64,000 bases of DNA from Akkermansia muciniphila (GTDB lineage: Bacteria; Pseudomonadota; Gammaproteobacteria; Burkholderiales; Burkholderiaceae_C). A model generated the notes under the pieces. It did not search any database. It saw nothing but the letters and a program-made list of their open reading frames with translations, and had not been told where the DNA came from. Made by a program: the position numbers and the translations under genes. The DNA is taken from the NCBI GenBank assembly GCA_943331105.2, contig CALQKH020000001.1, positions 372,001 to 436,000 of the forward strand. The letters are read 5' to 3'. Positions 8,131 to 23,456 of this stretch are shown piece after piece. How positions within the stretch are numbered: the stretch's first letter is position 1; each line of letters opens with the position of its first letter.

Positions 8131-9126
8131 TCAATCGAGTTTGGCGCCCGATGCCTTCACCACTTGGGACCACTTGGCCAATTCTTTTTTGATGAAAGCT
8201 TCGAACTGAGCGCCCGTGAGGTTGGGAAATTCAGCGCCTTGGTTGGCCCACACGGCTTTGGCTTCGTCGGTCTGGCAGGCACGGCGGAACTCTTCGATCG
8301 CTTTGGCCTGTGCGTCTGGGGTGGTGCCTCTAGGGGCCCATACACCGTACCAAGTAGAGACCGTGTAATCGGGCAAACCCAACTCGGTCGAACAAGGCAC
8401 ATCTGGGAAAGCCGCATTGCGCTTGGTGCCAGAGACCATCAGGGCCTTGATGCGCCCACCCTTGATGTGGGCAGCCGAGGACCCGAGTCCATCGAACATC
8501 ATGTCCACGTTGCCCGCAATCAGGTCTTGCAAGGCGGGCCCTGCGCCACGGTATGGGATGTGGGTGATGAAGGTTTTGGTCTGCAGCTTGAACAACTCAC
8601 CGGCCAAATGGTGCGATGTTCCGCCACCAGCAGAGCCGTAGTTCAGACGGCCAGGGTTCTTTTTGAGCATTTCCAGAAATGATTTGAAATCTGGCGAGGT
8701 GATTTTCTTGGGGTTGACCACCAAAACCTGAGGCACAGCCGCCACTTGAATCAAGGGAATCAGATCGCGCTCCAGATCGTAATCAAGGCGTGGGTACATG
8801 CTGGGTGCGATGGTGTGGTGCACGGCCCCCATGAAGTAGTTGTAACCATCGGGCGTCGCTTTGGCAGCGATGCCAGCGCCCAAAGTACCGCCCGCACCAC
8901 CGCGGTTGTCAATGATCATTTGCCGGCCAGTCAGCTTGGCAAATGCAGCAGACATGGGGCGCGCAAAGGCGTCGGTGCCTCCGCCTGCGGGAAAAGGAAC
9001 AATCATGTTGATCGGCTTCGTCGGCCATGCGCCCTGGGCTTGAGCCCACATGGGCAGGGAGCCGGCGGCGACTGAGACGACTTTCAAAAAATCGCGTCGT
9101 TGGCGCAAAGTGATGCTTGTTTTCAT
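8131..9126 (-). CDS. Bug/TctC-type tripartite tricarboxylate transporter receptor, Tat-exported
   Basis: A 331-residue periplasmic solute-binding protein of the Bug family. The N-terminus carries RQRRDFLKVV, a twin-arginine motif, followed by a hydrophobic stretch ending AQAQG, so export by Tat is likely. Family motifs are PTKPINMIVPFPAGGGTD and DNRGGAGGTLGAGIAAKATPDGY. ATG 9126 is preceded by AGGAG; a longer open frame upstream is not supported. No TctA/TctB membrane partners are nearby, which is common for Bug proteins. It lies 62 nt upstream of matB, suggesting malonate or another carboxylate as ligand; the ligand cannot be read from sequence. Confidence 0.9.
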   Translation of the reverse strand: MKTSITLRQRRDFLKVVSVAAGSLPMWAQAQGAWPTKPINMIVPFPAGGGTDAFARPMSAAFAKLTGRQMIIDNRGGAGGTLGAGIAAKATPDGYNYFMGAVHHTIAPSMYPRLDYDLERDLIPLIQVAAVPQVLVVNPKKITSPDFKSFLEMLKKNPGRLNYGSAGGGTSHHLAGELFKLQTKTFITHIPYRGAGPALQDLIAGNVDMMFDGLGSSAAHIKGGRIKALMVSGTKRNAAFPDVPCSTELGLPDYTVSTWYGVWAPRGTTPDAQAKAIEEFRRACQTDEAKAVWANQGAEFPNLTGAQFEAFIKKELAKWSQVVKASGAKLD

Positions 9127-9282: not shown

Positions 9283-9951
9283 TCATAAAGTAGCAAGCCT
9301 TTGGATAGCCTTTGAGAAACTTTGTGCAGGTTCAAACACGTCAAACGTCACCGCTTGCAAGCCGCAAGCCTTGGCGCCTTCGATGTTGCGTGCTTGATCA
9401 TCCACAAACACCGCGTGCTCAGCCTGCACCCCCAAGGCCTGCAAACACGCCTGGTAAGCGCGTGGGTCGGGCTTGAGGATTTGGGTGTAAGTGGCGTCCA
9501 CAATCACGTCAAACCGCTGGAGCAAGGGAAAAGGCGCGCGAAAATCCGCGCCATAAAACAGATCCAGCTCATTGGACAAAATGCCCAGCTTGTAGCCCAG
9601 CGCCTTGGCCTGGTGGATGACCGCCACTGCTTCGGGCCGGATCACGGCCTGTACATCCGCCCCTCGAGCGCGCCGCACAAAGGTCTGCATCTCGGTCCAT
9701 TCTTCGCCCAACAAGCGACCGACCTCGCGGGTGCGTTGCATCCAGTAATCGCGTTCACTGATTTGATCGGCCTGCATGGCTTGCCAGAGCGCATCGGTTT
9801 CAGGGGCAAACGGGCCTTCCCAGGTGAGCGTGCCGGCAGGCAGGCCCAAAGCGGCTTCACTCAAGGCGTGGGTTTCAAACAGGGTGCGGCTGATCACGCC
9901 GCCAAAGTCCAGAATCAGGGCCTTGTCTTCAGGTCTCAGCGCATCAGACAT
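9283..9951 (-). CDS. HAD-superfamily hydrolase (type IA)
   Basis: A 222-residue haloacid-dehalogenase-like hydrolase. Motif I is LDFGGVI with nucleophile D15; the second aspartate of the usual DxD is replaced by glycine, as in soluble epoxide hydrolase N-terminal-like and related HAD proteins. Motif II is ILSNE, motif III the lysine in ILKPDPRAY, motif IV VFVDDQARNIEGA. The cap inserted after motif I is helical. It starts 9 nt after the UPF0261 gene and is probably the last gene of the amine-type operon. The substrate is unknown; phosphatase or dehalogenase activity is possible. Confidence 0.8.
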   Translation of the reverse strand: MSDALRPEDKALILDFGGVISRTLFETHALSEAALGLPAGTLTWEGPFAPETDALWQAMQADQISERDYWMQRTREVGRLLGEEWTEMQTFVRRARGADVQAVIRPEAVAVIHQAKALGYKLGILSNELDLFYGADFRAPFPLLQRFDVIVDATYTQILKPDPRAYQACLQALGVQAEHAVFVDDQARNIEGAKACGLQAVTFDVFEPAQSFSKAIQRLATL

Positions 9952-9960
9952 GGATCGCTT

Positions 9961-11202
9961 TCATGCCCGCACAGGCATCAACAGCCCTTTGTCCAGCCAA
10001 TCGTCAAACACTGCAAGCACCTGCTGCACAAAAGCAGCATCGTTGATGTGCGCGTCGATGCGCGAGACTTCAGTCAAACCCCAATCGCATTGCGCCATTT
10101 CATCCATCATGGCCGCCAGGCCTTCTGGATCGTGCAGTGGTGCACCGGCCCGGTCCCACTCTTGAATGCCTTGCAATGGCAACACCAAGTGCACCGGGCC
10201 TTGTGCCCGGCGCAGGCGGCTGGCCAACTCGCGGGCAAACTCCCGGCGCATGTCGGCATCAATGCCCACCGAAGCGATCAGGCGGTTGTGGTCGTGCGAG
10301 GGTCGCCCGGCAAAGCGCTCGGGCATCTGACCCCATGCGGGGTAATCCACCAAATCGGTCGCCCCGGGGGCGACGATCATCGGCACGCCTTTGCCGCCCG
10401 CGCCCATCAGGCGGTCGGGGCCTGCGCTCACCACGGAGCCGCCCATCTGGTTGACCAGCTCTTGCAGACTGAAGTCCATCACGCAGGCGAACTGCCCCTG
10501 TGCTGCCAGCAATTCAAACGCCCTGCCCCCCATGCCCGTGGTATGGAACACCGCCAGATCAAACCCACGCTTGTCCAGCTCGGGCTGCAGTTGCACCATG
10601 TATTTCAGGCAACTCGAGCCCAAAGACGTCATGCCCACCACCGGCCGGTCAAAGCGCGGCACACGCGCCACGCGGCAGGCTCCCACCACGGCGCCTGCGG
10701 CTTGCGCCAATGCCGACTGGCACAGGCTGTTGAGGCCATACAAGCCTCCGGCCCAGAGCACCATCATCAAATCGGGCGGCATGCGATCGGGTGGCAACAG
10801 GGGCGAAAACGCCACGGTGGACAACACCACCTTGGGCACGCCCAACGGCAAACTGCTGGCCACGTCCAGCGCCAGGTCGGTGCCCATGGTGCCGCCAAGC
10901 ACCAGCAAGCCGTCCATGCGGCCTTCGCGCTGCAGTTGGGCAGCCAAGCGGCTCGCGCCCAGGGCCATCAAGGCCATGGCGCTGTTTTCGTCGCCGCTGT
11001 CCATCACCTGCTGCAGCGTCACGCCCGCTGCTGCGGCCACAGCGGTGTTGGCCATGTCCGGGACCACCTGCCCTTTGGCCAGCACACCCACGTCCATGAT
11101 CAATGCTCGGCCCCCTGCGGCCTGGACCTGCTCTCGCATGAAGCCGATTTCGTCGCTCTTGGTGTCGACGGTGCCGACGATCAGGATGACGGGGCTCTTC
11201 AT
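9961..11202 (-). CDS. UPF0261 / Tm-1-like ATP-binding domain protein
   Basis: A 413-residue protein of the UPF0261 (Tm-1-like) family. It starts MKSPVILIVGTVDTKSDE, with the conserved GTVDTK segment, and contains the family-typical glycine-rich stretches VLGGTMGTD and VFHTTGMGGRAFE. The ATG at 11202 overlaps the aminotransferase stop as ATGA, so the two are translationally coupled; the longer open frame starting at 11250 is not needed. Members occur in bacterial catabolic clusters and as a domain of the plant Tm-1 resistance protein, but I know of no settled bacterial function. Its coupling to an aminotransferase and aldehyde dehydrogenase suggests a role in the same pathway. Confidence 0.8.
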   Translation of the reverse strand: MKSPVILIVGTVDTKSDEIGFMREQVQAAGGRALIMDVGVLAKGQVVPDMANTAVAAAAGVTLQQVMDSGDENSAMALMALGASRLAAQLQREGRMDGLLVLGGTMGTDLALDVASSLPLGVPKVVLSTVAFSPLLPPDRMPPDLMMVLWAGGLYGLNSLCQSALAQAAGAVVGACRVARVPRFDRPVVGMTSLGSSCLKYMVQLQPELDKRGFDLAVFHTTGMGGRAFELLAAQGQFACVMDFSLQELVNQMGGSVVSAGPDRLMGAGGKGVPMIVAPGATDLVDYPAWGQMPERFAGRPSHDHNRLIASVGIDADMRREFARELASRLRRAQGPVHLVLPLQGIQEWDRAGAPLHDPEGLAAMMDEMAQCDWGLTEVSRIDAHINDAAFVQQVLAVFDDWLDKGLLMPVRA

Positions 11203-12563
11203 GCGCGGCCCTCCTGCACAGCGGCAAACGCGCCTTCGAGCACGTCGCACATGAAGTCGATCTCTTCTCGGGTGATGATCAGCGGCGGCGACAGGATCAG
11301 GTTGGGGCCGGAGATGCGCACCATCAGACCCGCCTTGTAGGCGGCTTTAGCCACCCGCGCCGGGATGTCACTGGTGCGGGTCATGGGCGTGCGTTTGGCC
11401 TTGTCGCTCACCATTTCGATGCCCAGCATCAGGCCCACACCGCGCACATCACCCACAAAGCTGCAGGTGTCCACCAGCTTGCGCAAGCGGGTCTGCAGGT
11501 GCTCACCCACTCGGGCGGCATGGCCGGGGATGTCCAGCGCCTCGATCTGGTCGAGTGTGGCCAGCGCCGCAGCGGCTGCGACCGGGTGCGCGCTGTAGGT
11601 GTAGCCGTGCGAGACCGAGGCCGTGCCCGTGGTGTCGGCGTCAAACACGTCGGCAATGCGGTGGTTGATGGCTGTGGCCCCCAGCGGGATATAGCCCGAA
11701 GAAATGCCCTTGGCCAGGCACCACATGTCGGCATTCACACCCCACAGGCGTGTGCCAAACAGCTCGCCACTGCGACCAAAACCGGTCACCACCTCGTCGG
11801 CGATCAAGAGCACGCCGTACTTGTCGCAAATCTGGCGCACCAGCGGCCAGTAGTTGGGCGGCGGCACGATCACACCGCCCGCACCTTGCACCGGCTCGGC
11901 AATGAAAGCCGCCACCGTGTCCGGCCCCTGAAACACGATTTCGCGCTCCAGCAACTCAGCGCAGATTTCGCCCAGGCGGATCGGGTCATCGGTGTAGGGG
12001 TTGTGGTACGCCCAGGGCGTGTCGATGTGAAAGCAACCGGGCAACAGCGGCTCGTAGGCGCGGCGGAAATTGGTGTTGCCGTTCACGCTCATGCCGCCAA
12101 AGTGCACCCCGTGGTAACCCTGGCGCAGGCTGATGAACTTGTAACGGTCGGCCTGACCTTTGAGTTTCCAGTACTGGCGCGCCACTTTCAGGGCACCTTC
12201 TACCGCGTCAGAGCCGCCAGTAGAAAACATCACCGTGGCCACGCCCTCGGGTTGCATCAACTGCACCAGACGTTTGGACAGCTCGATCGCCCGCACATGG
12301 GTGGTGCCGCGGAACACGTTGTAAAAAGGCAGCTCGTCCATCTGCGCCACGATGGCGTCGCGCACGGGCTTGTTGCTGTGGCCCAGGTTGCAGGCCCACA
12401 GGCCACCAACGCCGTCAAGCATCTTGTGACCGTCCACGTCCCAGATCCAGCAGCCCGCACCTTTGGCGATGATGTCGGGCGCGGATTTCTTCATCGCCCC
12501 CGGGTGGGCCATGGGATGCCAGAGATATTGCGCGTTGTCGGCCTTGAGCTGGTCGTTGTTCAT
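11199..12563 (-). CDS. PLP-dependent class III (omega) aminotransferase
   Basis: A 454-residue aminotransferase that should move an amino group from a terminal amine or omega-amino acid to pyruvate or 2-oxoglutarate. FSTGGSDAVEGALK binds PLP phosphate, LIADEVVTGFGR carries the pyridine-binding D256, and AKGISSGYIPLGA carries the Schiff-base lysine K285. YLWHPMAHP near the N-terminus is typical of omega-amino acid:pyruvate aminotransferases. ATG 12563 is chosen over an in-frame TTG at 12578. It follows the aldehyde dehydrogenase by 18 nt and overlaps the UPF0261 gene. By position it would correspond to PuuE in a gamma-glutamylated amine pathway; the true amino donor is not determinable here. 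Confidence 0.9.
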   Translation of the reverse strand: MNNDQLKADNAQYLWHPMAHPGAMKKSAPDIIAKGAGCWIWDVDGHKMLDGVGGLWACNLGHSNKPVRDAIVAQMDELPFYNVFRGTTHVRAIELSKRLVQLMQPEGVATVMFSTGGSDAVEGALKVARQYWKLKGQADRYKFISLRQGYHGVHFGGMSVNGNTNFRRAYEPLLPGCFHIDTPWAYHNPYTDDPIRLGEICAELLEREIVFQGPDTVAAFIAEPVQGAGGVIVPPPNYWPLVRQICDKYGVLLIADEVVTGFGRSGELFGTRLWGVNADMWCLAKGISSGYIPLGATAINHRIADVFDADTTGTASVSHGYTYSAHPVAAAAALATLDQIEALDIPGHAARVGEHLQTRLRKLVDTCSFVGDVRGVGLMLGIEMVSDKAKRTPMTRTSDIPARVAKAAYKAGLMVRISGPNLILSPPLIITREEIDFMCDVLEGAFAAVQEGRA

Positions 12564-12581
12564 GTCATTTACTTTCAAAAA

Positions 12582-14066
12582 TCAAAGCTGAATCCAGGCC
12601 GTTTTCAGGTCCAGGTATTTGTCCAGGGCGTGCATCGATTTATCGTGTCCATTGCCCGACTGGCGCACGCCGCCAAGTGGCACGGTGATGTCGGGTCCGC
12701 CGTAGGTGTTGACGTGCACCACCCCGGCCTTGATGGCGCGCACCATGCGGTGGGCACGCGACAGACTCCCCGTCCACACGGCCGACGCCAGGCCATAGGT
12801 CGAATCGTTGGCCAGACGCACCGCATCGGCTTCGTCGTCAAAAGGCATGGCCGCCAGCACCGGGCCAAAGACTTCTTCGCGTGCCAAGTTCATGTCGGGT
12901 GTCACACCGTCGAACAAGGCAGGCGCCATGTAGCTGCCGCCCGCCACGGGCTGCAAAGCTTGGCCGCCCACCCGCAGGCGCGCGCCCTGCTGCTGCGCGG
13001 TCTGCACCGCTGCCAAATTTTTGGCAAGTTGCCTGGCGCTGCTGACCGCGCCGATCTCTGTGTTGACATCCAGCGGATCGCCCACACGCAAACTGGCAGC
13101 GATTTTTTGCAGCCGTTCCACGAATTCATCGTGTACCGAACGTTGCACCAAAAGCCGAGAGCCCGCCACACACACCTGACCGCTGTTGCGGAAGATGCCC
13201 ATGGCCGACACTTTGGCGGCTTGCGCTAGGTCGATCGCATCGTCAAAAACAATGTTGGGCGACTTGCCGCCCAGTTCCAGGTACACCCGTTTCAGGTTGG
13301 ACTCGGCCGAAGCCTTGAGCAGCAAACGCCCCACAGGGCCCGAGCCAGTGAAGGTCAAGATGTCCACATCCATGTGTCGCGCCAGTGCCTCCCCCGCCTC
13401 AGCGCCTGTGCCGGTGACCACATTGAGCACTCCCGGCGGCAAACCTGCTTCCAGACACAGCTGCGCGAGTAGCAACAAAGACAGCGAGGCATCTTCGGAC
13501 GACTTGAGCACCACCGAGTTGCCTGCAGCCAAAGCGGGCGCGATCTTCCAAGCACCGATCATCAGCGGAAAGTTCCACGGCACGATGGCCCCGACAACGC
13601 CGACCGCCTCCTTGTGGATCAAGCCCAGCGTGCCTTCTGGTGTGGGGGCGATCTCGCCATTGATCTTGTCCACGCACTCGGCGTAGTAGCGGAAGGTGCC
13701 CGCCGCGCTGCCCGGCTCGGCCTTCCAGGCCATGGCAATTTCGGTGCCGTTGTCGCGCACGCCCAGCACCGCCAGTTCGGCATGGCGGGCTTCGATGCAG
13801 TCAGCGATGCGGTGCAGAATTTTCTTGCGCTCGGCTGGCGCCATGCGCGACCACACGCCCTGCTCGAAGCTGCGGCGGGCGGCCTGAACAGCGCGGTCGA
13901 CATCGGCCTGTCCAGCAGCCGCGATGGTGCAGAGCTGTTGTCCGTCGATGGGTGAAATCACGGGGACCGTCTGGCCGGAGGTCGCAGCGGCCCACTGCCC
14001 GTCGATCATCAGTCCTTGGTCGGGAATGGGCAGGTGGCGCAGGGCGTCGATCTGTTCCTGTTTCAT
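12582..14066 (-). CDS. NAD(P)-dependent aldehyde dehydrogenase (PuuC-like)
   Basis: A 494-residue aldehyde dehydrogenase of the betaine/gamma-glutamyl-aminobutyraldehyde type. VPWNFPLMIGAWKIAPALAAG forms the cofactor site, LELGGKSPN holds general base E264, and NSGQVCVAGSR holds catalytic C299. The segment after the cofactor lysine reads LKSSEDAS rather than the common KPAEQTP. It begins 9 nt after the ferredoxin gene and is followed closely by the aminotransferase. In context it would oxidise an aldehyde made by amine oxidation, as PuuC does. Family is sure; substrate is inferred from neighbours. Confidence 0.92.
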   Translation of the reverse strand: MKQEQIDALRHLPIPDQGLMIDGQWAAATSGQTVPVISPIDGQQLCTIAAAGQADVDRAVQAARRSFEQGVWSRMAPAERKKILHRIADCIEARHAELAVLGVRDNGTEIAMAWKAEPGSAAGTFRYYAECVDKINGEIAPTPEGTLGLIHKEAVGVVGAIVPWNFPLMIGAWKIAPALAAGNSVVLKSSEDASLSLLLLAQLCLEAGLPPGVLNVVTGTGAEAGEALARHMDVDILTFTGSGPVGRLLLKASAESNLKRVYLELGGKSPNIVFDDAIDLAQAAKVSAMGIFRNSGQVCVAGSRLLVQRSVHDEFVERLQKIAASLRVGDPLDVNTEIGAVSSARQLAKNLAAVQTAQQQGARLRVGGQALQPVAGGSYMAPALFDGVTPDMNLAREEVFGPVLAAMPFDDEADAVRLANDSTYGLASAVWTGSLSRAHRMVRAIKAGVVHVNTYGGPDITVPLGGVRQSGNGHDKSMHALDKYLDLKTAWIQL

Positions 14067-14075
14067 GAAGCGCTT

Positions 14076-14390
14076 TCAGTCGGGCACATGCAGCACGATG
14101 CCATCGAGCGCGCTGGACGCGATCAGCTGGCAACTCAAACGGCTGCCCGCTTGGCGTGGCGCTATGACGATGTCGAGCATGGCGTTTTCCACCTCTTCCA
14201 TGGGCGGGCAAGCGGCCAGCCAGGCGTCATCCAAATAGACATGACAAGTGGCGCACGACAGGCAGCCACCGCATTCTCCTGCAATGCCGGGAATGCCGTT
14301 CATCTGCGCGGCGTCCATCAGGTTGGTGCCTTCGTTGACGTCATCGCTCACGCGATCGCCATTGCTCATGATCCAGTGCACTTGGGGCAT
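14076..14390 (-). CDS. 2Fe-2S ferredoxin, adrenodoxin type
   Basis: A 104-residue vertebrate-type (adrenodoxin/putidaredoxin-like) ferredoxin. The cluster ligands are C40, C46, C49 and C87 in the C-x5-C-x2-C ... C pattern (GECGGCLSCATCHVY and RLSCQL); an extra C43 sits inside the loop. Such ferredoxins donate electrons to class I bacterial P450s. The P450 gene lies two genes upstream in the same run, so this is its likely partner. No ferredoxin reductase gene is in the cluster. Confidence 0.93.
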   Translation of the reverse strand: MPQVHWIMSNGDRVSDDVNEGTNLMDAAQMNGIPGIAGECGGCLSCATCHVYLDDAWLAACPPMEEVENAMLDIVIAPRQAGSRLSCQLIASSALDGIVLHVPD

Positions 14391-14408
14391 GGGGTTTGTT
14401 CTTTCAGA

Positions 14409-15701
14409 TCAGATGAATCGGATGTAGTAATCGCGCAGCGCATCGCCTTCCAGGCCTGCCGTGCGTTCAATCTCGTGGCGCTTGATGCCCACATGGTTGG
14501 CCACCAAGCCTTCGCCCAGGGCCTGGGTCAGGGCCGTGTCGGCTTCGAGCGCATCCAGGGCACCGCCCAAAGTTTCTGCCACGCTCTGGGTAGCGTCCTT
14601 GTTTTCGAGGCAGTCGCCCGTCTCTGCGGGTTGCAGCGGGTAGGCGTTGGCCACGCCCAAGCGGGCGGCCTGCAACACTGCCGCAGTGTGCGTGTAGGGG
14701 TTGGCCGCAGCGTCGCCCATGCGGTGCTCAATGCGAGCGCCCGCACCGCTTTCAGCCGACAAGCGCACGGTGACGCCCCGATGGTCCACCGCCCAGTTTT
14801 TCCAAAAGCCAGACAGGCTGGCCGGTTGCAGGCGTTGGTAAGAGTTGGCGCACGGCGCCAATAAGCCCGCCAGCGCCTGGTGGTGGTGCATCAGCCCGGC
14901 GGTGCAGCCCAGTGTGATTGCGTTGAACTGGCTGGCATCGTGCCCGCCCGAAATCGCGTTGTGGCCTTGACCGTCACGCAGGCTGAAGTTGATGTGCACC
15001 CCGCTGCCCCCGACCGTGAGGATGGGCTTGGGCATGAAGGTCAAAACGATGCCGTGCTGGAAAGCGACTTCGCGCGCCAGCAGGCGAAACAAGAAGATGT
15101 CGTCCACCGCCTTCACGGCACGGTCGTAGGTCAGCGTGAATTCGAACTGCGGCGCGTCGTATTCGGTGTTCATGCTGTCGATGCGAAAGCCCGCGGCCGT
15201 GGCTTTTTCCCAAAGGGCGTCGGTGAAACCCCTCGGGTCGGAGAAGGGACCAGTTGAATACACATGGGCCGCAGGCGTGTCGTAGGGTTTGAGCGAGCCG
15301 TCGGGCTCGATCTGGAAAGCAAAGGCTTCGAGCTCAATGCCCACCATCGGGTCGTAACCCATGGCCTGCCAGTCGGCCACGGCGCGTTTCAAAGCACTGC
15401 GCCCGCACATGGGCAGGGGCGTGCCATCGTTGGCTTTGAGATCGCCAATAGCCACCTGGGTGAAGGGCTGCCAGCCCGGGCGAATGTCTTCGGCGGTGTA
15501 AGCCGCCTCCATGTCAGGCAGGCCTTCCATGACCATCGCGCCTGGGGCCGGAATCAGCTCTTTTTCGTAAGTGACGCCAAAAGTGCCTCTGCAAAAACGG
15601 GCACCGCCGCCCTGACCGGGTTTGAGCGTTATGTACTTGCCCCGCGCGATGGCCAGGTGGTCGCAATACAGCACCCGCAGGCGTTCTTGAACATTGGACA
15701 T
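14409..15701 (-). CDS. Glutamine synthetase family ligase, probable gamma-glutamylamine synthetase (PuuA-like)
   Basis: A 430-residue glutamine-synthetase-fold enzyme. Catalytic features are GIELEAFAF, NTEYDAPQFEFTL (metal-binding glutamates), GSGVHINFSL (ATP-site histidine) and RLSAESGAGARIEHRMGDAAANPY. ATG 15701 is chosen; an upstream open frame overlapping the P450 end is rejected. The N-terminal region diverges from housekeeping GlnA, and the setting beside oxidation genes and an amidotransferase-type hydrolase fits enzymes that join glutamate to an amine (PuuA, IpuC) rather than ammonia. The amine is unknown. It follows the P450 by 11 nt and precedes the ferredoxin by 18 nt. Confidence 0.85.
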   Translation of the reverse strand: MSNVQERLRVLYCDHLAIARGKYITLKPGQGGGARFCRGTFGVTYEKELIPAPGAMVMEGLPDMEAAYTAEDIRPGWQPFTQVAIGDLKANDGTPLPMCGRSALKRAVADWQAMGYDPMVGIELEAFAFQIEPDGSLKPYDTPAAHVYSTGPFSDPRGFTDALWEKATAAGFRIDSMNTEYDAPQFEFTLTYDRAVKAVDDIFLFRLLAREVAFQHGIVLTFMPKPILTVGGSGVHINFSLRDGQGHNAISGGHDASQFNAITLGCTAGLMHHHQALAGLLAPCANSYQRLQPASLSGFWKNWAVDHRGVTVRLSAESGAGARIEHRMGDAAANPYTHTAAVLQAARLGVANAYPLQPAETGDCLENKDATQSVAETLGGALDALEADTALTQALGEGLVANHVGIKRHEIERTAGLEGDALRDYYIRFI

Positions 15702-15712
15702 GGTGTTTCCTT

Positions 15713-16978
15713 TCAGATGAGGTGCATGCGCACGGGCAAACGCTTGATGCCCGAGACAAAGTTGGAACGTAAAAAAGCGTGCGGTGCGGTCTGCTCGATG
15801 CGGTCCACCCGCTTGATCAACTCCTGCAGCAAAACTCGCAACTCCAGCCGCGCCAGCCACATGCCCAGGCAGGCATGCGCCCCGCCCTGCCCGAACGACA
15901 GGTGGCGGTTCACGCCCCGGTTCAGGTCGACAGTGAACGGCTGGTCAAAAGCCCGCTCGTCGCGGTTGCCCGAGATGAACCAGAGCAGCACCTTGTCGCC
16001 CGCCTTGACCTGCTTGCCGTGGTACTCGAAGTCCTCGGTCGCGGTGCGGCGAAAGTGCGTGGCAGGTGAGGCCCAGCGGATGAACTCATCGGCCACGCCC
16101 TCCCAGGCGGCCTCGCCCTGCACCGCCTTGAGCTGCGCCATCAAGCCGGGCTGGTTGGCCAGTGCGTGCAAGGCGGCAGCGATCGAATAGCGAGTGGTGT
16201 CGTTGCCTGCAGCCACCAGAAGACAAAAAAAGTTACGAAATTCGGTGTCGCTGATCACATTGCCCTGGGCGTCGGGCTGGGTGATCAGGTGCAGCACGCC
16301 GCTGGTGTCACCCGCTGCGCGCTTGCGTTCCATCATCTGGGCCGCGTAGTCGAACAGGTCAGCCCCGGCGGGTGAGCGAAACGGCATGAAGCGGTAGGCC
16401 TCGGTGTCCATCTTGTCGACCACATGGCTGGTGAAATCGCTGTCGGTGTTGGCCATGAGTGCGTCACCCTTGTCCACCAGCCAGTCCAGGTCCTCCTCGG
16501 GCAGGCCCGCGATGCGCCCGAGCATGCGCATGGGCAACTGGCGGGCGATCTGGTGCGTGGCGTCAAACTCGCCTTGGCCAAGGGCCTGGTCAAGGATGCC
16601 CACACAGAGTTCACGGATCTGGTCTTCGTACAAGGCCATCATGGGCTTGGAGAACGCCTTGGCCACCAGCATGCGGGTGCGGGTGTGCTCGGGCGGGTCG
16701 GTTTCTTGAAAGGTGCGCCGCGCCATGTACTCCTCATGCGACTGGTCTTCCATGCGGATGCCCTGCGCCGAGGACAAGCGCTGGTGATTGCGGTTGAGCT
16801 CCAGAATGTCGGCATGCCGCGTGACCGACCAGAAACCCTTGCCATCCGCCCAATCGCACCAGGCCATGGGGTCTTCATCACGCAGGCGCTTGAAGGTGTT
16901 GTGCGGCGTGCCGTTCACATAGCTGTCGTGGTCCGCCAAATCGGCGTGGCCATCGTCGGTGGGGTTCCAGACGGTCAT
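15713..16978 (-). CDS. Cytochrome P450 monooxygenase
   Basis: A 421-residue soluble bacterial P450. The I-helix oxygen-activation motif is AAGNDTTR (256-263), the ExxR pair is E298/R301, and the haem loop FGQGGAHACLG has ligand C370. That loop has one residue more between F and C than the common FGxGxHxC form; I recall the same spacing in CYP124/125/142-type enzymes. ATGA overlap with the upstream amidotransferase gene and 11-nt spacing to the glutamine-synthetase-like gene place it in the operon. It probably hydroxylates an amine or its gamma-glutamyl conjugate, with electrons from the nearby ferredoxin. The substrate is an inference. Confidence 0.93.
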   Translation of the reverse strand: MTVWNPTDDGHADLADHDSYVNGTPHNTFKRLRDEDPMAWCDWADGKGFWSVTRHADILELNRNHQRLSSAQGIRMEDQSHEEYMARRTFQETDPPEHTRTRMLVAKAFSKPMMALYEDQIRELCVGILDQALGQGEFDATHQIARQLPMRMLGRIAGLPEEDLDWLVDKGDALMANTDSDFTSHVVDKMDTEAYRFMPFRSPAGADLFDYAAQMMERKRAAGDTSGVLHLITQPDAQGNVISDTEFRNFFCLLVAAGNDTTRYSIAAALHALANQPGLMAQLKAVQGEAAWEGVADEFIRWASPATHFRRTATEDFEYHGKQVKAGDKVLLWFISGNRDERAFDQPFTVDLNRGVNRHLSFGQGGAHACLGMWLARLELRVLLQELIKRVDRIEQTAPHAFLRSNFVSGIKRLPVRMHLI

Positions 16979-17703
16979 GGGTTGGTGGTCCTTGCGTGAT
17001 CAAAAAACTGCACCATCCATTGCCCAAACAAGGGCACATCGGCGGCGTTGTTCAGGCTGGTGTGGGCACGGGCCATGGTGGCGGGGTCGAGCTTGTCGGC
17101 CAGATAGCCCAGCAAAGCCTGCATGAACACCAGTGGCATTTCGGGGTGAAACTGAGTAGTCCAGATGTGCTGGCCGATCTGCATCGAGCCGATGGGGCAA
17201 AAGTCACTGCCACCCAAACACACGGCGCCTTCAGGCATGCTGGTGACCTGTTCGTTGTGGGCGGCCATCAAGGTGGTGGTGGTTTGCGGTGGGGTCATCC
17301 AGGGGCGCTGTCGATGCCAATTCGTGGGGGCGGTGCCCAGACCCCAGCCTGCGGCGTTGCGCGCCACCTGCCCGCCCAGCGCCCGGGCCACCGCCTGGTG
17401 GCCAAAGCACAGGCCAATCAGCGGCTTGCGAGCGGCATGCACGGCCCGGATGAAATCCAGCAACTGACCCACCCAATGAAGGCTGTCGTCGTTGACCGAG
17501 GCCGGACTGCCGGTGATGACGTAGCCGTCAAAGGCCTCTGGACTGGCAGGCAGCACCCCGTCCTTGACCGGCACCACCTCATAAGTCCAGTCGGGGCGAA
17601 GGGGTTGGAGCAGATGCACCACCTTTTGGCCATCATTCGGAAATTTCGCGGCAAACGCCGAGGTGTCGTCGTTGGTCAGTAAAACGGCAATGCGTCGTGT
17701 CAT
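16975..17703 (-). CDS. Class I glutamine amidotransferase-like hydrolase
   Basis: A 242-residue GATase1-fold protein. The nucleophile elbow GLCFGHQ holds C99, and TTQFHPEM holds H186 and E188, completing the triad. No synthetase domain is attached, so it is a free-standing amidohydrolase of the GMP-synthase-like GATase group. As first gene of a run with a gamma-glutamyl ligase it may remove the glutamyl group at the end, as PuuD (also a GATase1-fold hydrolase, different subfamily) does. Its stop overlaps the P450 start (ATGA). Promoter DNA lies between it and the divergent regulator gene. Confidence 0.85.
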   Translation of the reverse strand: MTRRIAVLLTNDDTSAFAAKFPNDGQKVVHLLQPLRPDWTYEVVPVKDGVLPASPEAFDGYVITGSPASVNDDSLHWVGQLLDFIRAVHAARKPLIGLCFGHQAVARALGGQVARNAAGWGLGTAPTNWHRQRPWMTPPQTTTTLMAAHNEQVTSMPEGAVCLGGSDFCPIGSMQIGQHIWTTQFHPEMPLVFMQALLGYLADKLDPATMARAHTSLNNAADVPLFGQWMVQFFDHARTTNP

Positions 17704-17858: not shown

Positions 17859-18818
17859 ATGAGCTCCCCCGTGCCCGATTCAGCATGGGTCCAGGTGCTG
17901 GACACCCAAGACATGGACCAGCACGCCCTGGCCCAGCAGGGCTGGGCACTGCAATACGAGCAGCTCTCACCCGGCCAGTTCAAGGGGCGCATTCACCAAG
18001 TGCAGCTCCCCGAGGTGACCTTACTTCGTGAAGACACCAACATTGCCTTGCGTCAGCGCGGGCGGCTTGATGACAGCGTCTATGGTTTTGCCATGGCGCT
18101 GCAGGACTCGCCAGATTTGTTTTTCAACGGTCAAAGGGTGCCGGACCACGCCATCATGTGTGGCAAGGGCGATGAAGTCGACCTGACCACCCCACCCCAC
18201 TTCACCCTGATCGCCGTGGTGGTTAACCGCAGCCTGCTCAACCCGCTTTGGGAGCGCATGTACCAAAAGCCTCTGGCGCATTGGCTCGAAAAGCAGCTGG
18301 TGCTGAAAACCACCGACATCAAGGCGCAAACCCTGCGCGACCTGCAACTTACCGTCCTGGACCAGGCCAGCGCCCTTGCACACCGCCAGCACGACCCACA
18401 GGCCCTGCGCCAACTGCGCGATGAAATCTTGATGGAATGGCTAGAAGCTTTGCCTGCGAAGGTTGACACCTCCGAACTGCCCACCCTAGAGCGGCGCAAG
18501 AAACTGGTGGATCGTGCGTGTGAGCTGATGATGGGCCACGCCGACGAGCCACTGTCCATCCTCGAAGTGTGCAGCCGCGTGGGCACCAGCCGACGCAAAC
18601 TCAATTACTGCTTTCAGGACGTGCTGGGCACCACGCCCATCAAGTACCTGCGCTCGCTGCGCCTGAACAGCGTGCGCCGCGCCTTGCGCCAAGCCGCGCC
18701 CGGCGTGACCATCCAGGACATTGCCTCGCACTGGGGCTTTTGGCACCTGAGCCAGTTCGCACAAGACTACCGCCACCTGTTTGGCGAGCTGCCTTCGGAC
18801 ACGATGCACAAGCGATGA
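17859..18818 (+). CDS. AraC-family transcriptional regulator, EutR-like
   Basis: A 319-residue regulator with an N-terminal sensory region and a C-terminal AraC double helix-turn-helix: RACELMMGHADEPLSILEVCSRVGTSRRKLNYCFQD, then PIKYLRSLRLNSVRRALRQ and IQDIASHWGFWHLSQFAQDYRHLFGELPS. The C-terminal pattern and overall layout resemble ethanolamine-operon regulators (EutR). ATG 17859 (MSSPVPDS) is preferred to the far upstream start at 17697, which would overlap the promoter region and the opposite gene. It is divergent from the P450 operon and likely controls it. Its stop overlaps the exporter gene start (ATGA). Confidence 0.88.
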   Translation: MSSPVPDSAWVQVLDTQDMDQHALAQQGWALQYEQLSPGQFKGRIHQVQLPEVTLLREDTNIALRQRGRLDDSVYGFAMALQDSPDLFFNGQRVPDHAIMCGKGDEVDLTTPPHFTLIAVVVNRSLLNPLWERMYQKPLAHWLEKQLVLKTTDIKAQTLRDLQLTVLDQASALAHRQHDPQALRQLRDEILMEWLEALPAKVDTSELPTLERRKKLVDRACELMMGHADEPLSILEVCSRVGTSRRKLNYCFQDVLGTTPIKYLRSLRLNSVRRALRQAAPGVTIQDIASHWGFWHLSQFAQDYRHLFGELPSDTMHKR

Positions 18819-19690
18819 GCAGCGCCAGCCAAACCCAGCTCACCGCCATCCTGACCATGGTCGCAGCCATGGCCTGCCTGTCAACGCAAGACACCCTGAG
18901 CAAAAAGCTGATGCTCAGCGTGGCGCCCGTCATCATCATCTGGACGCGCTACGCCCTGCAAACCGCGCTGGTCAGCGCCACGATTTGGCGCAGGCATTCG
19001 CCCGAACTGTGGCGCACACGGCAGTGGCGACTGCAACTGCTGCGCGGCGCGCTGGTCGTAAGCGGCAGCGTGTTTGGCTATGGCGCCTTACAGCGCATGC
19101 CAGTGGCCGAGTTCACCGCCATTTATTGTCTGGTACCGCTGGCCGTGACTTTTGTAGCCCGGTTTGTGATGAAGGAAAGCGTGTCCTGGCTGGGCTGGCT
19201 GTGTGTGGCAGGCGGCATGACGGGCGCCTTGTTGGTGGTGCGCCCAGGCGGTGATGTGGACCCCATGGGCGCCAGCCTGGCGATGATGGGAGTGGTTTGC
19301 TACACCGGCTTTCAGACCCTCACGGGCTACTTGGCGCGGCAGGACTCACCGCTCACCATTCAGCTGTGCACCAGCGCGCTGGGCTTTGCGCTGATGTCGG
19401 CCGCAGTGCCTTTTTTCTGGCCTGACCAGATGTCCTGGCCAGACTTGGCCCTGCTGGGCTTGGTGGCGCTGGCGGGCTCTTACGGCCAGTATTTCACGGT
19501 GCTGGCATTTTCCAAAGCGCCCGCCTCGGTCTTAACGCCTTACCTTTACTCGGCCATCGGTTTCTCTGCGCTGGGCGGTTGGTGGATGTTTGACCACCTG
19601 CCGGATGCTCTGGCCCTGTGCGGCATGGGGATGATCGCGGGCTTTGGCCTGGCGGCTGGCTGGCTGAACCAAAGAAAAGCCAAACCATGA
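18815..19690 (+). CDS. EamA/DMT-family membrane transporter
   Basis: A 291-residue drug/metabolite transporter with about ten hydrophobic helices in two EamA repeats (about residues 10-140 and 150-285). Segments such as MACLSTQDTLSKKLM and YGQYFTVLAFSKAPASVLTPYLY are typical. The ATG overlaps the regulator stop and its own stop overlaps the DUF2817 gene, so all three are translationally coupled. It could export or import an amine, amino acid or pathway intermediate; direction and substrate are not known. Confidence 0.88.
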   Translation: MSSASQTQLTAILTMVAAMACLSTQDTLSKKLMLSVAPVIIIWTRYALQTALVSATIWRRHSPELWRTRQWRLQLLRGALVVSGSVFGYGALQRMPVAEFTAIYCLVPLAVTFVARFVMKESVSWLGWLCVAGGMTGALLVVRPGGDVDPMGASLAMMGVVCYTGFQTLTGYLARQDSPLTIQLCTSALGFALMSAAVPFFWPDQMSWPDLALLGLVALAGSYGQYFTVLAFSKAPASVLTPYLYSAIGFSALGGWWMFDHLPDALALCGMGMIAGFGLAAGWLNQRKAKP

Positions 19691-20757
19691 GTACACCGCT
19701 TTTCAGCCCCAATTACCGCGAGGCCCGTGCGCGTTTTGCTCTGGCTGCCGACGCCTGTGGGGCTCAGTTGCACCGTTATGCATTGCCATTGCTGGGCGCA
19801 CAGGGCGAAGAACTCGCCATGGACGTGGCCGTCCAAGGCCCGGCAGATGCCGCCCAAGTGCTGATGACCACCAGCGCGGTGCATGGCATCGAAGGCTTTT
19901 GCGGCTCAGCCATCCAGACCGGTTTGCTGCACTGTCTCTCGCTGCCGCCCGGTGTGGCCGTGGTACATGTGCATGCGGTCAACCCGCACGGATTTTCGCA
20001 TGCGCGGCGGGTCAACGAGGACAACGTGGACCTCAACCGTAACTTCATTGACTTTGCCCGGCCCTTGCCGGTCAACGCCGACTATGCCGAGGTCCAAGAC
20101 CTGCTGCTGCCCCCACAATGGCCGCCCAGCCCGCAAGCCACGACAGCACTGCAAGCCCAGGCCGAGGTCTGGGGCGAGCGCCGCATGCAGCGGGCCATCA
20201 CCAGCGGGCAATACCAGTTTCCCCAAGGCGTTTGGTTCGGGGGTCTGACTCCCACCTGGAGTCACCGCACATTCCGGCAGGTGCTGCGAACCCATTTGGG
20301 TCAGGCCCGCCAGATCGCCTGGATCGACCTGCACACGGGCTTGGGGCCACACGGCCATGGCGAGCGAATCTTTGCTTGCACCGACAACGGCGAAACACTT
20401 CAGCGGGCCCGCCAATGGTGGGGGCCAGACATCACCTCTGTTGACACAGGCACGTCCCAAAGCGTGCCCCTGTCCGGGCCCATTCAGATGGCGATTGACG
20501 AGGAGTGCCCAGAGGCTCAATACACCGGCATTTGCCTGGAGTTTGGCACCTTGCCGCTGGCGCAGATGATCCAAGCCATGCGGGCCGACCACTGGCTGGC
20601 CCTGCACCCCGAGGCCCCGCCCGAGCAGCACCGCGCCATCCGAGCCGACATGCTGCAGGCCTTCAACCCACCGTCGTCCGAGTGGCAAAAACAAGTTTGG
20701 CAGCAAGGCCTGCAAGCGGCCCTCCAGGCGGTGCAGGGCTTGACCACACCATGCTGA
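19687..20757 (+). CDS. DUF2817 family zinc peptidase (M14-like)
   Basis: A 356-residue protein of the DUF2817 group, which has the M14 zinc carboxypeptidase fold. Visible elements are VHGIEG with zinc ligands H66 and E69, the substrate-clamp stretch NEDNVDLNRNF, WIDLHTGLG with the third zinc histidine, and GICLEFGT with the catalytic glutamate. No signal peptide is seen, so it is cytoplasmic. It is coupled to the EamA gene by an ATGA overlap. Hydrolysis of an amide or peptide bond, possibly of a pathway conjugate, is a reasonable guess. Confidence 0.82.
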   Translation: MSTPLFSPNYREARARFALAADACGAQLHRYALPLLGAQGEELAMDVAVQGPADAAQVLMTTSAVHGIEGFCGSAIQTGLLHCLSLPPGVAVVHVHAVNPHGFSHARRVNEDNVDLNRNFIDFARPLPVNADYAEVQDLLLPPQWPPSPQATTALQAQAEVWGERRMQRAITSGQYQFPQGVWFGGLTPTWSHRTFRQVLRTHLGQARQIAWIDLHTGLGPHGHGERIFACTDNGETLQRARQWWGPDITSVDTGTSQSVPLSGPIQMAIDEECPEAQYTGICLEFGTLPLAQMIQAMRADHWLALHPEAPPEQHRAIRADMLQAFNPPSSEWQKQVWQQGLQAALQAVQGLTTPC

Positions 20758-20892
20758 ACCGCATTTCTCGGGAAAACCCAGCCCAGACTTTGCAATTTTT
20801 CGATACCTTCTAAACCGTATCTTGTTCAGACTGTGGTCCTGACCCGGGGTGGCAACCGCTCCCCCTTCAACTGGACCAACAAGGACGAACCC

Positions 20893-21870
20893 ATGATTTC
20901 ACGCCGTACGATTTCCAGCCTGCTCGCGGGCCTGCTGAGCAGCCTGATGGTGCTCAGCGCCTCAGCGCAGGGCTTCCCCAATAAGATGGTCACCGTGATG
21001 GTGCCTTACCCTGCAGGCGGCCCTTCGGATGCAGTGGCCCGCCTGGTTCAGGTCGAGTACGAAAAAAGCTTGGGCCAGAAAATGATGGTGGAAAACCTGG
21101 GCGGTGTGAGCGGCGCTTTGGGCATCCAGAAGGTATTGGCGGCACCAGCTGACGGCTACTACCAGTTACTCGGCACCCCGATGGAGCTGGTGATGGCGCC
21201 GCTGGCCCTGTCAGCCGTCAAGTTCAAACCCGAGGAAGTGCGCTTGGCCAGTTTGTTGGGTCGCACCTCGATCGGCTTGGCCGTGCGCAAGGACCTGCCC
21301 GTCAACAACTTGACCGAATTCCTGGCCTGGGCCAAAGGCAAAAAGGTCAGCTACGCGAGCGTGGGTCAGGGCTCGCTTTATCACATCATGGGTGAGCGCT
21401 TCAAGACGCTGACGGGTCTGGACATGCTGCATGTGCCCTATAAAGCGGCCGTGCAAATCTACACCGATCTGGGCGGGAACACTGTTGACATGGCCTTCGT
21501 GCCGGTCGCAGGCCCCATCATCGGCATGGTCAAGGACAACCGCTTCAAGATCATCGGCATCTCCTCCACCGCGCCCCACCCACAACTGCCTGAAGCTGCC
21601 CCAATCAGCGCTCAGCGTGGCATGTCTGACTTTATTTTCGACATCTGGATCGGTTTGCAGGTGTCCAAAAATACACCTGACGCTGTGGTTCAGAAACTCA
21701 ACCAGGCCATGAACGAGGCCATCAAGTCTGAGGCCTTCGTCAAAGGGATGAACACCACCGGCAGCCAAGTGCCTGCGGGCATGAGCGTGGCCGAACTGGA
21801 CCGCTTCTACACCCAGGAAGTCAGCCGCTACCGCGCGCTGTTCAAGGCCGCCAACGTCGAACCACAGTGA
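20893..21870 (+). CDS. Bug/TctC-type periplasmic receptor, Sec-exported
   Basis: A 325-residue Bug-family solute-binding protein. A Sec signal peptide runs to about residue 25 (MISRRTISSLLAGLLSSLMV ... SASAQG); Ala-Gln is the likely cleavage site. Family motifs are VMVPYPAGGPSDAVAR, ENLGGVSGALGIQKVLAAPADGY and HVPYKAAVQIYTDLGG. ATG 20893 is chosen since the upstream 20 codons lack features. Two amidase genes follow, so the ligand may be an amide or a carboxylate released by them. No TctAB membrane genes are nearby. Confidence 0.9.
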   Translation: MISRRTISSLLAGLLSSLMVLSASAQGFPNKMVTVMVPYPAGGPSDAVARLVQVEYEKSLGQKMMVENLGGVSGALGIQKVLAAPADGYYQLLGTPMELVMAPLALSAVKFKPEEVRLASLLGRTSIGLAVRKDLPVNNLTEFLAWAKGKKVSYASVGQGSLYHIMGERFKTLTGLDMLHVPYKAAVQIYTDLGGNTVDMAFVPVAGPIIGMVKDNRFKIIGISSTAPHPQLPEAAPISAQRGMSDFIFDIWIGLQVSKNTPDAVVQKLNQAMNEAIKSEAFVKGMNTTGSQVPAGMSVAELDRFYTQEVSRYRALFKAANVEPQ

Positions 21871-23435: not shown

Positions 23436-23456
23436 ACCTCTGAAATCCCCCTGCCC

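What the first reader, a model, noticed from the sequence alone, without database searches (positions are those of the whole stretch)
11199..17703. Puu-like amine operon with a P450 and ferredoxin in place of the flavin oxidase
Seen directly: one co-directional run holds a GATase1 hydrolase, a P450, a glutamine-synthetase-like ligase, a 2Fe-2S ferredoxin, an aldehyde dehydrogenase and a class III aminotransferase, with ATGA overlap at the GATase-P450 junction and short gaps elsewhere. Known: the E. coli Puu pathway uses PuuA (glutamyl ligase), PuuB (FAD amine oxidase), PuuC (aldehyde dehydrogenase), PuuD (GATase1-fold hydrolase) and PuuE (aminotransferase). Every class has a counterpart here except PuuB, and P450 plus ferredoxin stand where it would act. 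I also recall P450 genes next to glutamine-synthetase-like genes in morpholine-degrading mycobacteria. Inference: a gamma-glutamylated amine or N-heterocycle is oxidised by the P450. The substrate is unknown.
Basis: partly seen in the sequence, partly recalled or inferred. Interest (0 to 1): 0.82.

Follow-up and report, generated by a model that had tools for sequence, protein, structure and literature searches.

The report
P450 operon for glutamate-tagged aromatic amines
A freshwater bacterium carries a set of genes that probably ties glutamate onto an aromatic amine such as tyramine, lets a P450 enzyme hydroxylate the tagged molecule, and then burns it as food, a route that looks new although its chemical trick is known from other amines.

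Summary
The gene run is real: GATase hydrolase, P450, glutamine-synthetase-like ligase, 2Fe-2S ferredoxin, PuuC-like aldehyde dehydrogenase and class III aminotransferase, continuing into UPF0261 and HAD genes. The ligase follows the P450 in 34 of 37 Limnohabitans-type loci (3 contigs end too early) and 59 of 61 Rhodobacteraceae loci.

By alignment the ligase has lost ammonia-site residues of glutamine synthetase. Glutamylation followed by a P450 is already in print for isopropylamine.

The Puu or N-heterocycle reading is not favoured. Of 61 Rhodobacteraceae loci, 15 hold a homoprotocatechuate-pathway (Hpa) gene near the P450 and 10 a decarboxylase match (one of each is weak). L181 holds most of the route. 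P450 and HpaH co-occur in 58 of 62 genomes against 68 of 283 (phylogeny uncontrolled). The window's genome has an Hpa cluster on another contig.

Best reading: tyramine is glutamylated, ring-hydroxylated by the P450, released as dopamine, deaminated and oxidised to homoprotocatechuate. No enzyme activity is shown, and HpaB is not depleted where the P450 is present.

The parts
16975..17703 (-). Class-I GATase-fold hydrolase; proposed gamma-glutamyl amide hydrolase
   Evidence: Pfam GATase 57 bits; motifs GLCFGHQ and FHPE; nearest solved sequence is gamma-glutamyl peptidase 1
15713..16978 (-). Cytochrome P450; proposed oxygenase of the gamma-glutamyl amine
   Evidence: Pfam p450 63.7 bits; AGNDT at 257; invariant Cys370 in FGQGGAHACLG; best solved matches CYP125MRCA, CYP268A2, CYP126
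14409..15701 (-). Glutamine-synthetase-like ligase; proposed gamma-glutamyl amine synthetase
   Evidence: Pfam Gln-synt_C 235 bits; scores nearly alike against GGputSyn (182.9) and type III GS (182), both far below their cut-offs; flap Glu replaced, no aligned Asp50
14076..14390 (-). 2Fe-2S ferredoxin, putative electron donor of the P450
   Evidence: Pfam Fer2 32.6 bits; cysteines at 40, 43, 46, 49, 61, 87
12582..14066 (-). Aldehyde dehydrogenase, PuuC/KauB-like
   Evidence: NCBIfam PuuC 549.5 bits (cut-off 850), HpaE 472.5, StyD 464.2; nearest solved KauB
11199..12563 (-). Class III aminotransferase, PRK07481 subfamily
   Evidence: 706 bits, over cut-off 575; nearest solved 5lh9 (omega transaminase) and 6s54
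9961..11202 (-). UPF0261 (Tm-1-like) protein, overlapping the aminotransferase stop by ATGA; role unknown
   Evidence: NCBIfam PRK02399.1-4 571.7 bits over cut-off 556; in 32 of 37 Limnohabitans-type and 12 of 61 Rhodobacteraceae stretches
9283..9951 (-). HAD-family hydrolase, next gene of the run; role unknown
   Evidence: Pfam Hydrolase 70 bits; in 30 of 37 Limnohabitans-type and 4 of 61 Rhodobacteraceae stretches
8131..9126 (-). Tripartite tricarboxylate transporter receptor (TctC), possible solute-binding protein; membership uncertain
   Evidence: Pfam TctC 210 bits; TctA genes in 32 of 61 Rhodobacteraceae stretches
17859..18818 (+). Divergent AraC-family regulator, EutR-like
   Evidence: HTH_18 79.7 bits; EutR model 169.7 (cut-off 319)

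Best explanation
A catabolic operon for an arylethylamine, most likely tyramine. Step 1: the GS-like ligase joins the amine to the gamma-carboxyl of glutamate at the cost of ATP. Step 2: the P450, fed by the ferredoxin and a reductase encoded elsewhere, hydroxylates the ring of the tagged amine (gamma-glutamyl-tyramine to gamma-glutamyl-dopamine). Step 3: the GATase hydrolase removes glutamate. Step 4: the class III aminotransferase turns the amine into an aldehyde. Step 5: the aldehyde dehydrogenase makes homoprotocatechuate (3,4-dihydroxyphenylacetate), which the Hpa meta-cleavage pathway, on another contig of this genome, degrades. Shown: gene content, conservation, loss of ammonia-site residues by alignment, linkage and co-occurrence with Hpa genes and a decarboxylase in relatives. 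Inferred: every reaction, the substrate, and the order of steps.
For: P450-ligase adjacency (within 400 bases, same strand): 34 of 37 Limnohabitans-type loci (the other 3 contigs end in or at the P450), 59 of 61 Rhodobacteraceae, 8 of 10 others, the last set hand-picked. Ligase: the flap Glu of the genome's GlnA is replaced and Asp50 has no aligned counterpart; no Glu at the flap in the 78 of 94 relatives where the motif could be read. Such losses are reported for organic-amine ligases (PMC11335346, passages). In L181 a same-strand run reads ALDH, TctA, TctC, GATase, P450, ligase, CHMI, HpaE, HpaD, decarboxylase, HpaG, HpaH (two small unidentified ORFs left out), with IclR and aminotransferase genes diverging from it; HpaE and HpaD pass their cut-offs, HpaH and HpaG do not. 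Decarboxylases of L042 and L181: best solved match DOPA decarboxylase. Of 61 stretches, 15 hold an Hpa-type gene (HpaD in 7, HpaI without HpaD in 7, a 37% HpaG match alone in 1) and 10 a decarboxylase match (9 at 58-82% identity, one at 25%). On the P450 tree this linkage label needs 11 changes (10-12 over bootstrap trees), at least 6 on well-supported branches. P450 and HpaH: 58 of 62 against 68 of 283 genomes, Fisher 1.9e-25. The window's genome holds HpaR, HpaD, HpaE, HpaG-C and HpaH over cut-off, HpaI 2 bits below, and CHMI. L040, the window type's sister in the tree (support 90/71), has part of HpaD, a decarboxylase, an HpaG-like protein and HpaH beside the set.
Against: If the P450 replaced HpaB, HpaB should be rarer where the P450 is present; it is not: 9 of 58 against 14 of 68 HpaH-positive genomes, p=0.50. 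A flavin monooxygenase (PRK08132) beside the set in 8 loci, and under 4 kb from the window genome's Hpa cluster, could be the ring hydroxylase instead. In Ruegeria TM1040 the set lies next to paaABCD, which would suit a phenylacetate sink. In Limnohabitans no Hpa gene is near the P450 (0 of 37 stretches, 28 of them 16 kb or more), and presence does not track: LigB-type HpaD in 31 of 33 P450-positive and 50 of 57 P450-negative genomes, p=0.48. 46 of 61 Rhodobacteraceae stretches show no Hpa gene; the HpaI of L042 is below its cut-off (331 of 369). The aldehyde dehydrogenase is closest to PuuC/KauB. UPF0261 and HAD have no role in the scheme. The co-occurrence test does not correct for phylogeny, and the tree's bootstrap had not settled.
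Confidence: 0.5

Rival explanations
1. Same kind of arylethylamine pathway and same glutamate tag, but the P450 does other chemistry (for example O-demethylation of a methoxylated phenethylamine, or hydroxylation of phenethylamine), and the catechol is made by another enzyme such as the PRK08132 flavin monooxygenase, or the product is a phenylacetate.
For: PRK08132 monooxygenase with decarboxylase and HpaI upstream of the set in L139, L141, L143, L146, L147, L151, L042, L045; HpaH-positive, P450-negative genomes mostly lack HpaB too, 54 of 68, so another source of homoprotocatechuate exists; paaABCD next to the set in Ruegeria TM1040.
Against: L181, L183, L144 and L158 carry Hpa genes but no PRK08132 match in the stretch read, leaving the P450 as the only hydroxylase recognised there. 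Tyramine needs just one hydroxylation.
Confidence: 0.24
2. One reading: a Puu-like or N-heterocycle pathway. A cyclic or aliphatic amine is glutamylated, oxidised next to nitrogen by the P450 to a gamma-glutamyl aminoaldehyde, then processed by ALDH, GATase and aminotransferase to a semialdehyde.
For: Every core gene has a step; ALDH is closest to PuuC/KauB; in Gulosibacter, P450 genes bioI and pipA and glutamine-synthetase genes have neighbouring locus numbers (PMC9477822, passages).
Against: Linkage to homoprotocatechuate genes and an aromatic decarboxylase in several lineages is unexplained. Relatedness to PipA/MorA was not tested: no named sequence could be fetched.
Confidence: 0.12
3. An Ipu-type pathway for a short alkylamine such as isopropylamine, the P450 hydroxylating a methyl group.
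For: P. aurescens pTC1 carries GATase, P450, ferredoxin, reductase and IpuC together.
Against: P450 and ligase of pTC1 are only 27% and 30% identical to the window's; Hpa linkage unexplained.
Confidence: 0.05
4. The ligase is an ammonia-using glutamine synthetase paralogue and the clustering with the P450 reflects nitrogen assimilation only.
For: Belongs to Pfam Gln-synt_C.
Against: The genome has a second, much better Gln-synt_C match, its GlnA, on contig C2; flap Glu lost and no aligned Asp50; fixed pairing with a P450.
Confidence: 0.03

Closest known systems
Ipu pathway (isopropylamine, Pseudomonas KIE171; Paenarthrobacter aurescens TC1 pTC1/pTC2)
   Same: GS-like ligase tags the amine; multicomponent P450 oxidises the tagged amine; amidotransferase-type hydrolase postulated to release it (PMC6776027, passages; pTC1 genes)
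   Different: Alkyl substrate; P450 27% and ligase 30% identical; reductase in the cluster; no class III aminotransferase or Hpa gene annotated in the stretch read
Aniline/1-naphthylamine pathways (AtdA, NpaA1-A5)
   Same: GS-like organic-amine ligase plus GATase-like enzyme plus an oxygenase acting on the gamma-glutamyl aromatic amine, product a dihydroxylated ring (PMC11335346, passages)
   Different: Rieske dioxygenase rather than P450; arylamine rather than arylethylamine
Puu putrescine pathway of E. coli (recalled)
   Same: Four of its five enzyme classes occur: ligase, aldehyde dehydrogenase, GATase hydrolase, aminotransferase
   Different: No PuuB in the run; P450 and ferredoxin present; proposed order of steps differs; ligase and ALDH below the GGputSyn and PuuC model cut-offs
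Mycobacterium pip/mor P450 operons (piperidine, morpholine) and Gulosibacter bioI/pipA clusters
   Same: P450, ferredoxin and a nearby glutamine-synthetase gene (Gulosibacter by locus numbers, PMC9477822, passages; Mycobacterium layout recalled)
   Different: N-heterocycle substrates; relatedness of the P450s not tested here
Tyramine/4-hydroxyphenylacetate pathway via amine oxidase and HpaBC (recalled)
   Same: Ends in homoprotocatechuate and the Hpa meta-cleavage enzymes
   Different: There deamination comes first and HpaBC hydroxylates the acid; here hydroxylation of a glutamate-tagged amine would come first

Membership tests
Organic-amine GS-like ligases (GoaS: PuuA, IpuC, AtdA1, NpaA1) | GS catalytic fold with conserved motifs | tested here: met
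   Gln-synt_C 235 bits; R.E[HNV]R motif in 94 of 94 full-length relatives, GGSG.H in 90 of 94
Organic-amine GS-like ligases (GoaS: PuuA, IpuC, AtdA1, NpaA1) | Loss of the Glu-flap residue of glutamine synthetase | tested here: met
   GlnA HYEAPV aligns with PASLSGF; no Glu there in 78 of 94 relatives with a readable motif, 16 not readable. Criterion from PMC11335346, which prints the residue as Glu357; I recall it as Glu327
Organic-amine GS-like ligases (GoaS: PuuA, IpuC, AtdA1, NpaA1) | Loss of catalytic Asp50 | tested here: inconclusive
   No Asp aligns with the DGSS motif of GlnA, but the region is gappy and the structure model is poor there
Organic-amine GS-like ligases (GoaS: PuuA, IpuC, AtdA1, NpaA1) | Activity with an organic amine and not ammonia | not testable with these tools
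   Needs an enzyme assay
Puu pathway | FAD amine oxidase PuuB | tested here: not met
   No such gene in the run 9283-17703; the rest of the genome was not searched for it
Puu pathway | PuuA and PuuC equivalogs over curated cut-off | tested here: not met
   GGputSyn 182.9 of 650 bits; PuuC 549.5 of 850 bits
Ipu-type system (ligase, P450, redox partners, hydrolase) | Ligase, P450, ferredoxin and GATase encoded together | tested here: met
Ipu-type system (ligase, P450, redox partners, hydrolase) | Isopropylamine as substrate | not testable with these tools
   No assay; pTC1 P450 and ligase 27% and 30% identical
Homoprotocatechuate (Hpa) catabolism, upper branch | Linkage or co-occurrence with Hpa genes | tested here: met
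   Met in relatives: an Hpa-type gene in 15 of 61 Rhodobacteraceae stretches (HpaD in 7); co-occurrence with HpaH 58 of 62 against 68 of 283
Homoprotocatechuate (Hpa) catabolism, upper branch | P450 takes the place of HpaB (HpaB depleted where P450 is present) | tested here: not met
   9 of 58 against 14 of 68, p=0.50
Homoprotocatechuate (Hpa) catabolism, upper branch | Linkage in Limnohabitans itself | tested here: not met
   0 of 37 stretches; Hpa cluster on another contig of the window's genome
CYP151 N-heterocycle P450s (PipA/MorA) | P450 sequence relatedness to PipA/MorA | not tested
   No named sequence could be fetched

The most novel reading that the evidence does not exclude
An undescribed bacterial tyramine/dopamine route: a P450 that is an obligate gamma-glutamyl-arylethylamine ring hydroxylase, paired with a dedicated glutamyl ligase, making dopamine from tyramine under a glutamate tag before deamination, found in freshwater Limnohabitans and in roseobacters, and extending from tyrosine to ring cleavage in a single gene cluster in some of them.
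Probability: 0.43. Interest if true: 0.75.

Novelty: new variant of a known kind. Interest (0 to 1): 0.6.

Why it matters
It would explain how aquatic bacteria, most of which here lack HpaB (88 of 90 Limnohabitans genomes; 310 of 345 Rhodobacteraceae genomes), could use aromatic amines, give a function to a conserved P450-ligase pair, and supply a P450 that recognises a glutamate handle, which could be useful for making catecholamines. It also suggests that glutamine-synthetase-like genes beside P450 genes mark glutamate-tagged substrates more generally, a testable rule that bears on the older piperidine and morpholine operons.

Tried and rejected
Puu-like or N-heterocycle reading: kept as a rival only; it does not explain the Hpa and decarboxylase linkage.

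HpaB replacement test: I expected HpaB to be depleted among P450-positive, HpaH-positive genomes; it was not (9 of 58 against 14 of 68). The genus-level test in Limnohabitans was uninformative because HpaD is near-universal there (31 of 33 against 50 of 57, p=0.48) and HpaB near-absent (2 of 90).

Literature: ten searches in the open-access library listed no paper that I recognised from its title or the start of its abstract as describing a glutamate-tagged tyramine P450 route. Several lists were capped (for example 15 of 132, 20 of 46), and subscription papers and preprints are not held, so this is weak evidence of novelty. The original Ipu and PipA papers are not held and are known to me only through citing papers and recall. 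Of three papers I saw passages (PMC9477822, PMC6776027, PMC11335346); of all others only search listings.

Structure of the ligase: a middling model (mean pLDDT 65, 124 of 430 residues under 50), so no fold search was made from it. My pattern for the common P450 heme motif matched 0 of 97 relatives because the motif here is one residue longer.

Rows left out or weak: the P450 fragment of G557 was not fetched, so 61 of 62 P450-positive Rhodobacteraceae genomes were read, 54 of them over 16 kb or more. One search dropped AMT, ALDH and HpaE matches under 40% identity and under 250 bits, and all matches under 70 bits. The linkage label has 22 rows, including rows with HpaI or decarboxylase only and two weak ones (L170, L172). 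The ten 'other' loci were picked by hand, some because both genes were known to be there; L057, counted as a miss, has a distant ligase in the same cluster with the GATase in between.


Full report
WHAT IS THERE. The window lies in a 3.4 Mb genome whose closest named matches are Limnohabitans and other Comamonadaceae. On the minus strand, in order of transcription, are a class-I GATase-fold protein (16975-17703), a P450 (15713-16978), a glutamine-synthetase-like ligase (14409-15701), a 2Fe-2S ferredoxin (14076-14390), an aldehyde dehydrogenase (12582-14066) and a class III aminotransferase (11199-12563). The GATase and P450 genes overlap by ATGA. The run continues into a UPF0261 gene that overlaps the aminotransferase stop by ATGA, then a HAD-family gene. 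An AraC-family regulator related to EutR diverges from about 17859.

CATALYTIC PARTS. The GATase has the motifs of an active hydrolase (GLCFGHQ, FHPE), and its best solved relative is gamma-glutamyl peptidase 1; each motif is present in 91 of 92 full-length relatives. The P450 has AGNDT (the general form in 97 of 97 relatives) and a heme Cys in a motif one residue longer than the common bacterial form; its best solved relatives are CYP125, CYP268 and CYP126 types. Against the genome's own GlnA, the ligase keeps the R-x-E-x-R and GGSG-x-H motifs but the flap Glu is replaced; in 78 of 94 relatives where the flap motif could be read none has Glu. Asp50 of GlnA has no aligned counterpart, though the region is gappy. 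PMC11335346 (passages) reports loss of the flap Glu (printed there as Glu357) and Asp50 in organic-amine ligases and that none was reported to convert ammonium. No ferredoxin reductase is in the window's run; 4 of 37 related loci have one between ligase and ferredoxin, and 3 of 37 an amino-acid permease between ferredoxin and aldehyde dehydrogenase.

CONSERVATION. A scan of bacterial and archaeal species genomes gave 45 loci. In the 37 Limnohabitans-type loci the ligase follows the P450 in 34, and the other 3 contigs end in or at the P450. In a sample of 345 genomes of the family of a Ruegeria relative, 62 have the P450 at E up to 1e-110; I read 61, and in 59 the ligase is within 400 bases on the same strand; of the two others, L154 has it 1 kb away on the other strand and L172 shows none. 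The GATase is in 58 of 61, ferredoxin in 27, aminotransferase in 32, aldehyde dehydrogenase in 26, UPF0261 in 12 (stretches up to 20 kb, some much shorter). L047 of the first scan has the P450 without the ligase. Within the genus of the window 33 of 90 genomes have the P450; in the wider family the ligase was found in 4 of 299 genomes.

SUBSTRATE EVIDENCE. L040 (Hyphomicrobiales) has the end of HpaD (cut by the contig edge), a PLP decarboxylase, an HpaG-like protein (170 of 276 bits) and HpaH over its cut-off immediately beside the set. L042 and L045 have a PRK08132 flavin monooxygenase, a decarboxylase and an HpaI-type aldolase (L042: 331 of 369 bits). The decarboxylases of L042 and L181 have DOPA decarboxylase as best solved match. 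In the Rhodobacteraceae sample 15 of 61 stretches hold an Hpa-type gene: HpaD in 7, HpaI without HpaD in 7, only a 37% HpaG match in 1; 10 of 61 have a decarboxylase match, one of them (L170) only 25% identical; 17 of 61 have one or other. In L181 a same-strand run reads ALDH, TctA, TctC, GATase, P450, ligase, CHMI, HpaE, HpaD, decarboxylase, HpaG, HpaH, leaving out two small ORFs of unclear status, with IclR and aminotransferase genes diverging from it; HpaE (749 of 638 bits) and HpaD (411 of 321) pass their cut-offs, HpaH (342 of 351.5) and HpaG-C (177 of 276) do not. On a P450 tree of 69 sequences the linkage label (22 rows, weak ones included) needs 11 changes of state, at least 6 on well-supported branches, against 18.9 on average for shuffled labels, so it is clustered yet was formed or lost repeatedly. 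More distant relatives on Novosphingobium and Streptomyces plasmids lie with LigB dioxygenase and FAH-family genes, but lack the GATase and aminotransferase in the stretch read and may act on something else.

CO-OCCURRENCE. HpaH (E up to 1e-90) is in 126 of 345 genomes (114 over the curated cut-off), in 58 of the 62 with the P450 and 68 of the 283 without (Fisher p 1.9e-25). This ignores shared ancestry. Of the 4 without HpaH, G557 is a P450 fragment and G402 has decarboxylase and HpaI beside the P450 (L151). All 10 genomes reached through ten chosen P450 loci have an HpaH match, 8 over the cut-off. The window's genome has HpaR, HpaD (Fe type), HpaE, HpaG-C and HpaH over cut-off, HpaI 2.2 bits under, and a CHMI gene, on contig C4, while the window is on C1.

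RESULTS AGAINST. HpaB is not rarer where the P450 is present (9 of 58 against 14 of 68 HpaH-positive genomes, p=0.50), so the P450 cannot be called a replacement of HpaB on this evidence. Within Limnohabitans HpaD is nearly universal (81 of 90) with no clear tie to the P450 (31 of 33 against 50 of 57, p=0.48), and HpaB is in 2 of 90. No Limnohabitans-type stretch has an Hpa gene (0 of 37). A flavin monooxygenase might be the ring hydroxylase; it also lies under 4 kb from the Hpa cluster of the window's genome. In Ruegeria TM1040 the set lies next to paaABCD, pointing to phenylacetate. Most Rhodobacteraceae stretches (46 of 61) show no Hpa gene.

MECHANISM. The most economical scheme that uses each core enzyme is: tyramine plus glutamate plus ATP to gamma-glutamyl-tyramine (ligase); ring hydroxylation to gamma-glutamyl-dopamine (P450, ferredoxin); release of dopamine (GATase); transamination to the aldehyde (aminotransferase); oxidation to homoprotocatechuate (aldehyde dehydrogenase); then the Hpa enzymes. 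The tag would hold the substrate in the P450 and shield a reactive catecholamine (inference). I give about 0.85 to a glutamate-tagged amine oxidised by the P450, about 0.7 to an arylethylamine, mostly feeding the Hpa pathway, and about 0.5 to the exact tyramine scheme.

COMPARISON. Glutamylation followed by a P450 is in print for isopropylamine: PMC6776027 (passages) describes it for P. aurescens TC1, citing earlier work, and pTC1 carries GATase, P450, ferredoxin, reductase and IpuC together. Glutamylation followed by a Rieske dioxygenase is known for aniline and 1-naphthylamine (PMC11335346, passages). The present set works like these, with sequences far from pTC1's (27% and 30%) and a different likely substrate. 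It resembles Puu in enzyme classes only: PuuB is absent from the run, and ligase and ALDH fall well below the GGputSyn and PuuC cut-offs.

VERDICT. A real, conserved catabolic operon; a new variant of a known strategy; substrate predicted with moderate confidence and readily tested.

Noticed in passing
window 9961-11202 and 9283-9951: UPF0261 (Tm-1-like) and HAD genes travel with the operon in Limnohabitans and with the same gene set in some Rhodobacteraceae (12 and 4 of 61 stretches); neither has a role in any proposed pathway.
   Followed up: partly
L040:7272-8621 and L184: A second, divergent glutamine-synthetase-like gene lies beside the P450-ligase set, next to an alpha/beta-hydrolase and an acyl-CoA-dehydrogenase-like gene in L040.
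   Followed up: no
L014:7059-8069 and L031:5099-6058: A gene that looks like a DNA cytosine methyltransferase (judged by eye) is inserted between ferredoxin and aldehyde dehydrogenase in some Limnohabitans-type loci.
   Followed up: no
L047:9001-10260: A 60% identical P450 without the ligase, beside what look by eye like Rieske dioxygenase and CoA-ligase genes; it may have taken another job.
   Followed up: no
L053:10988-20438 and L056:761-9260: Novosphingobium and Streptomyces plasmids carry the P450-ligase pair with LigB dioxygenase, FAH-family, aldehyde dehydrogenase and acetoacetate-decarboxylase-family genes, perhaps a related pathway with direct ring cleavage.
   Followed up: partly
L074:6097-7794 (G000:C4): PRK08132 flavin monooxygenase (820 bits, cut-off 416) near the genome's Hpa cluster, the same family as the one beside the P450 set in eight other loci; a candidate ring hydroxylase.
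   Followed up: partly
L054:6523-10321 (Ruegeria TM1040 megaplasmid): paaABCD and a 2Fe-2S protein gene lie directly upstream of the GntR-GATase-P450-ligase set.
   Followed up: no
window 19618-24917: DUF2817 protein, a TctC receptor and two amidase-family genes follow the divergent regulator; the first two recur at this place in several relatives.
   Followed up: no
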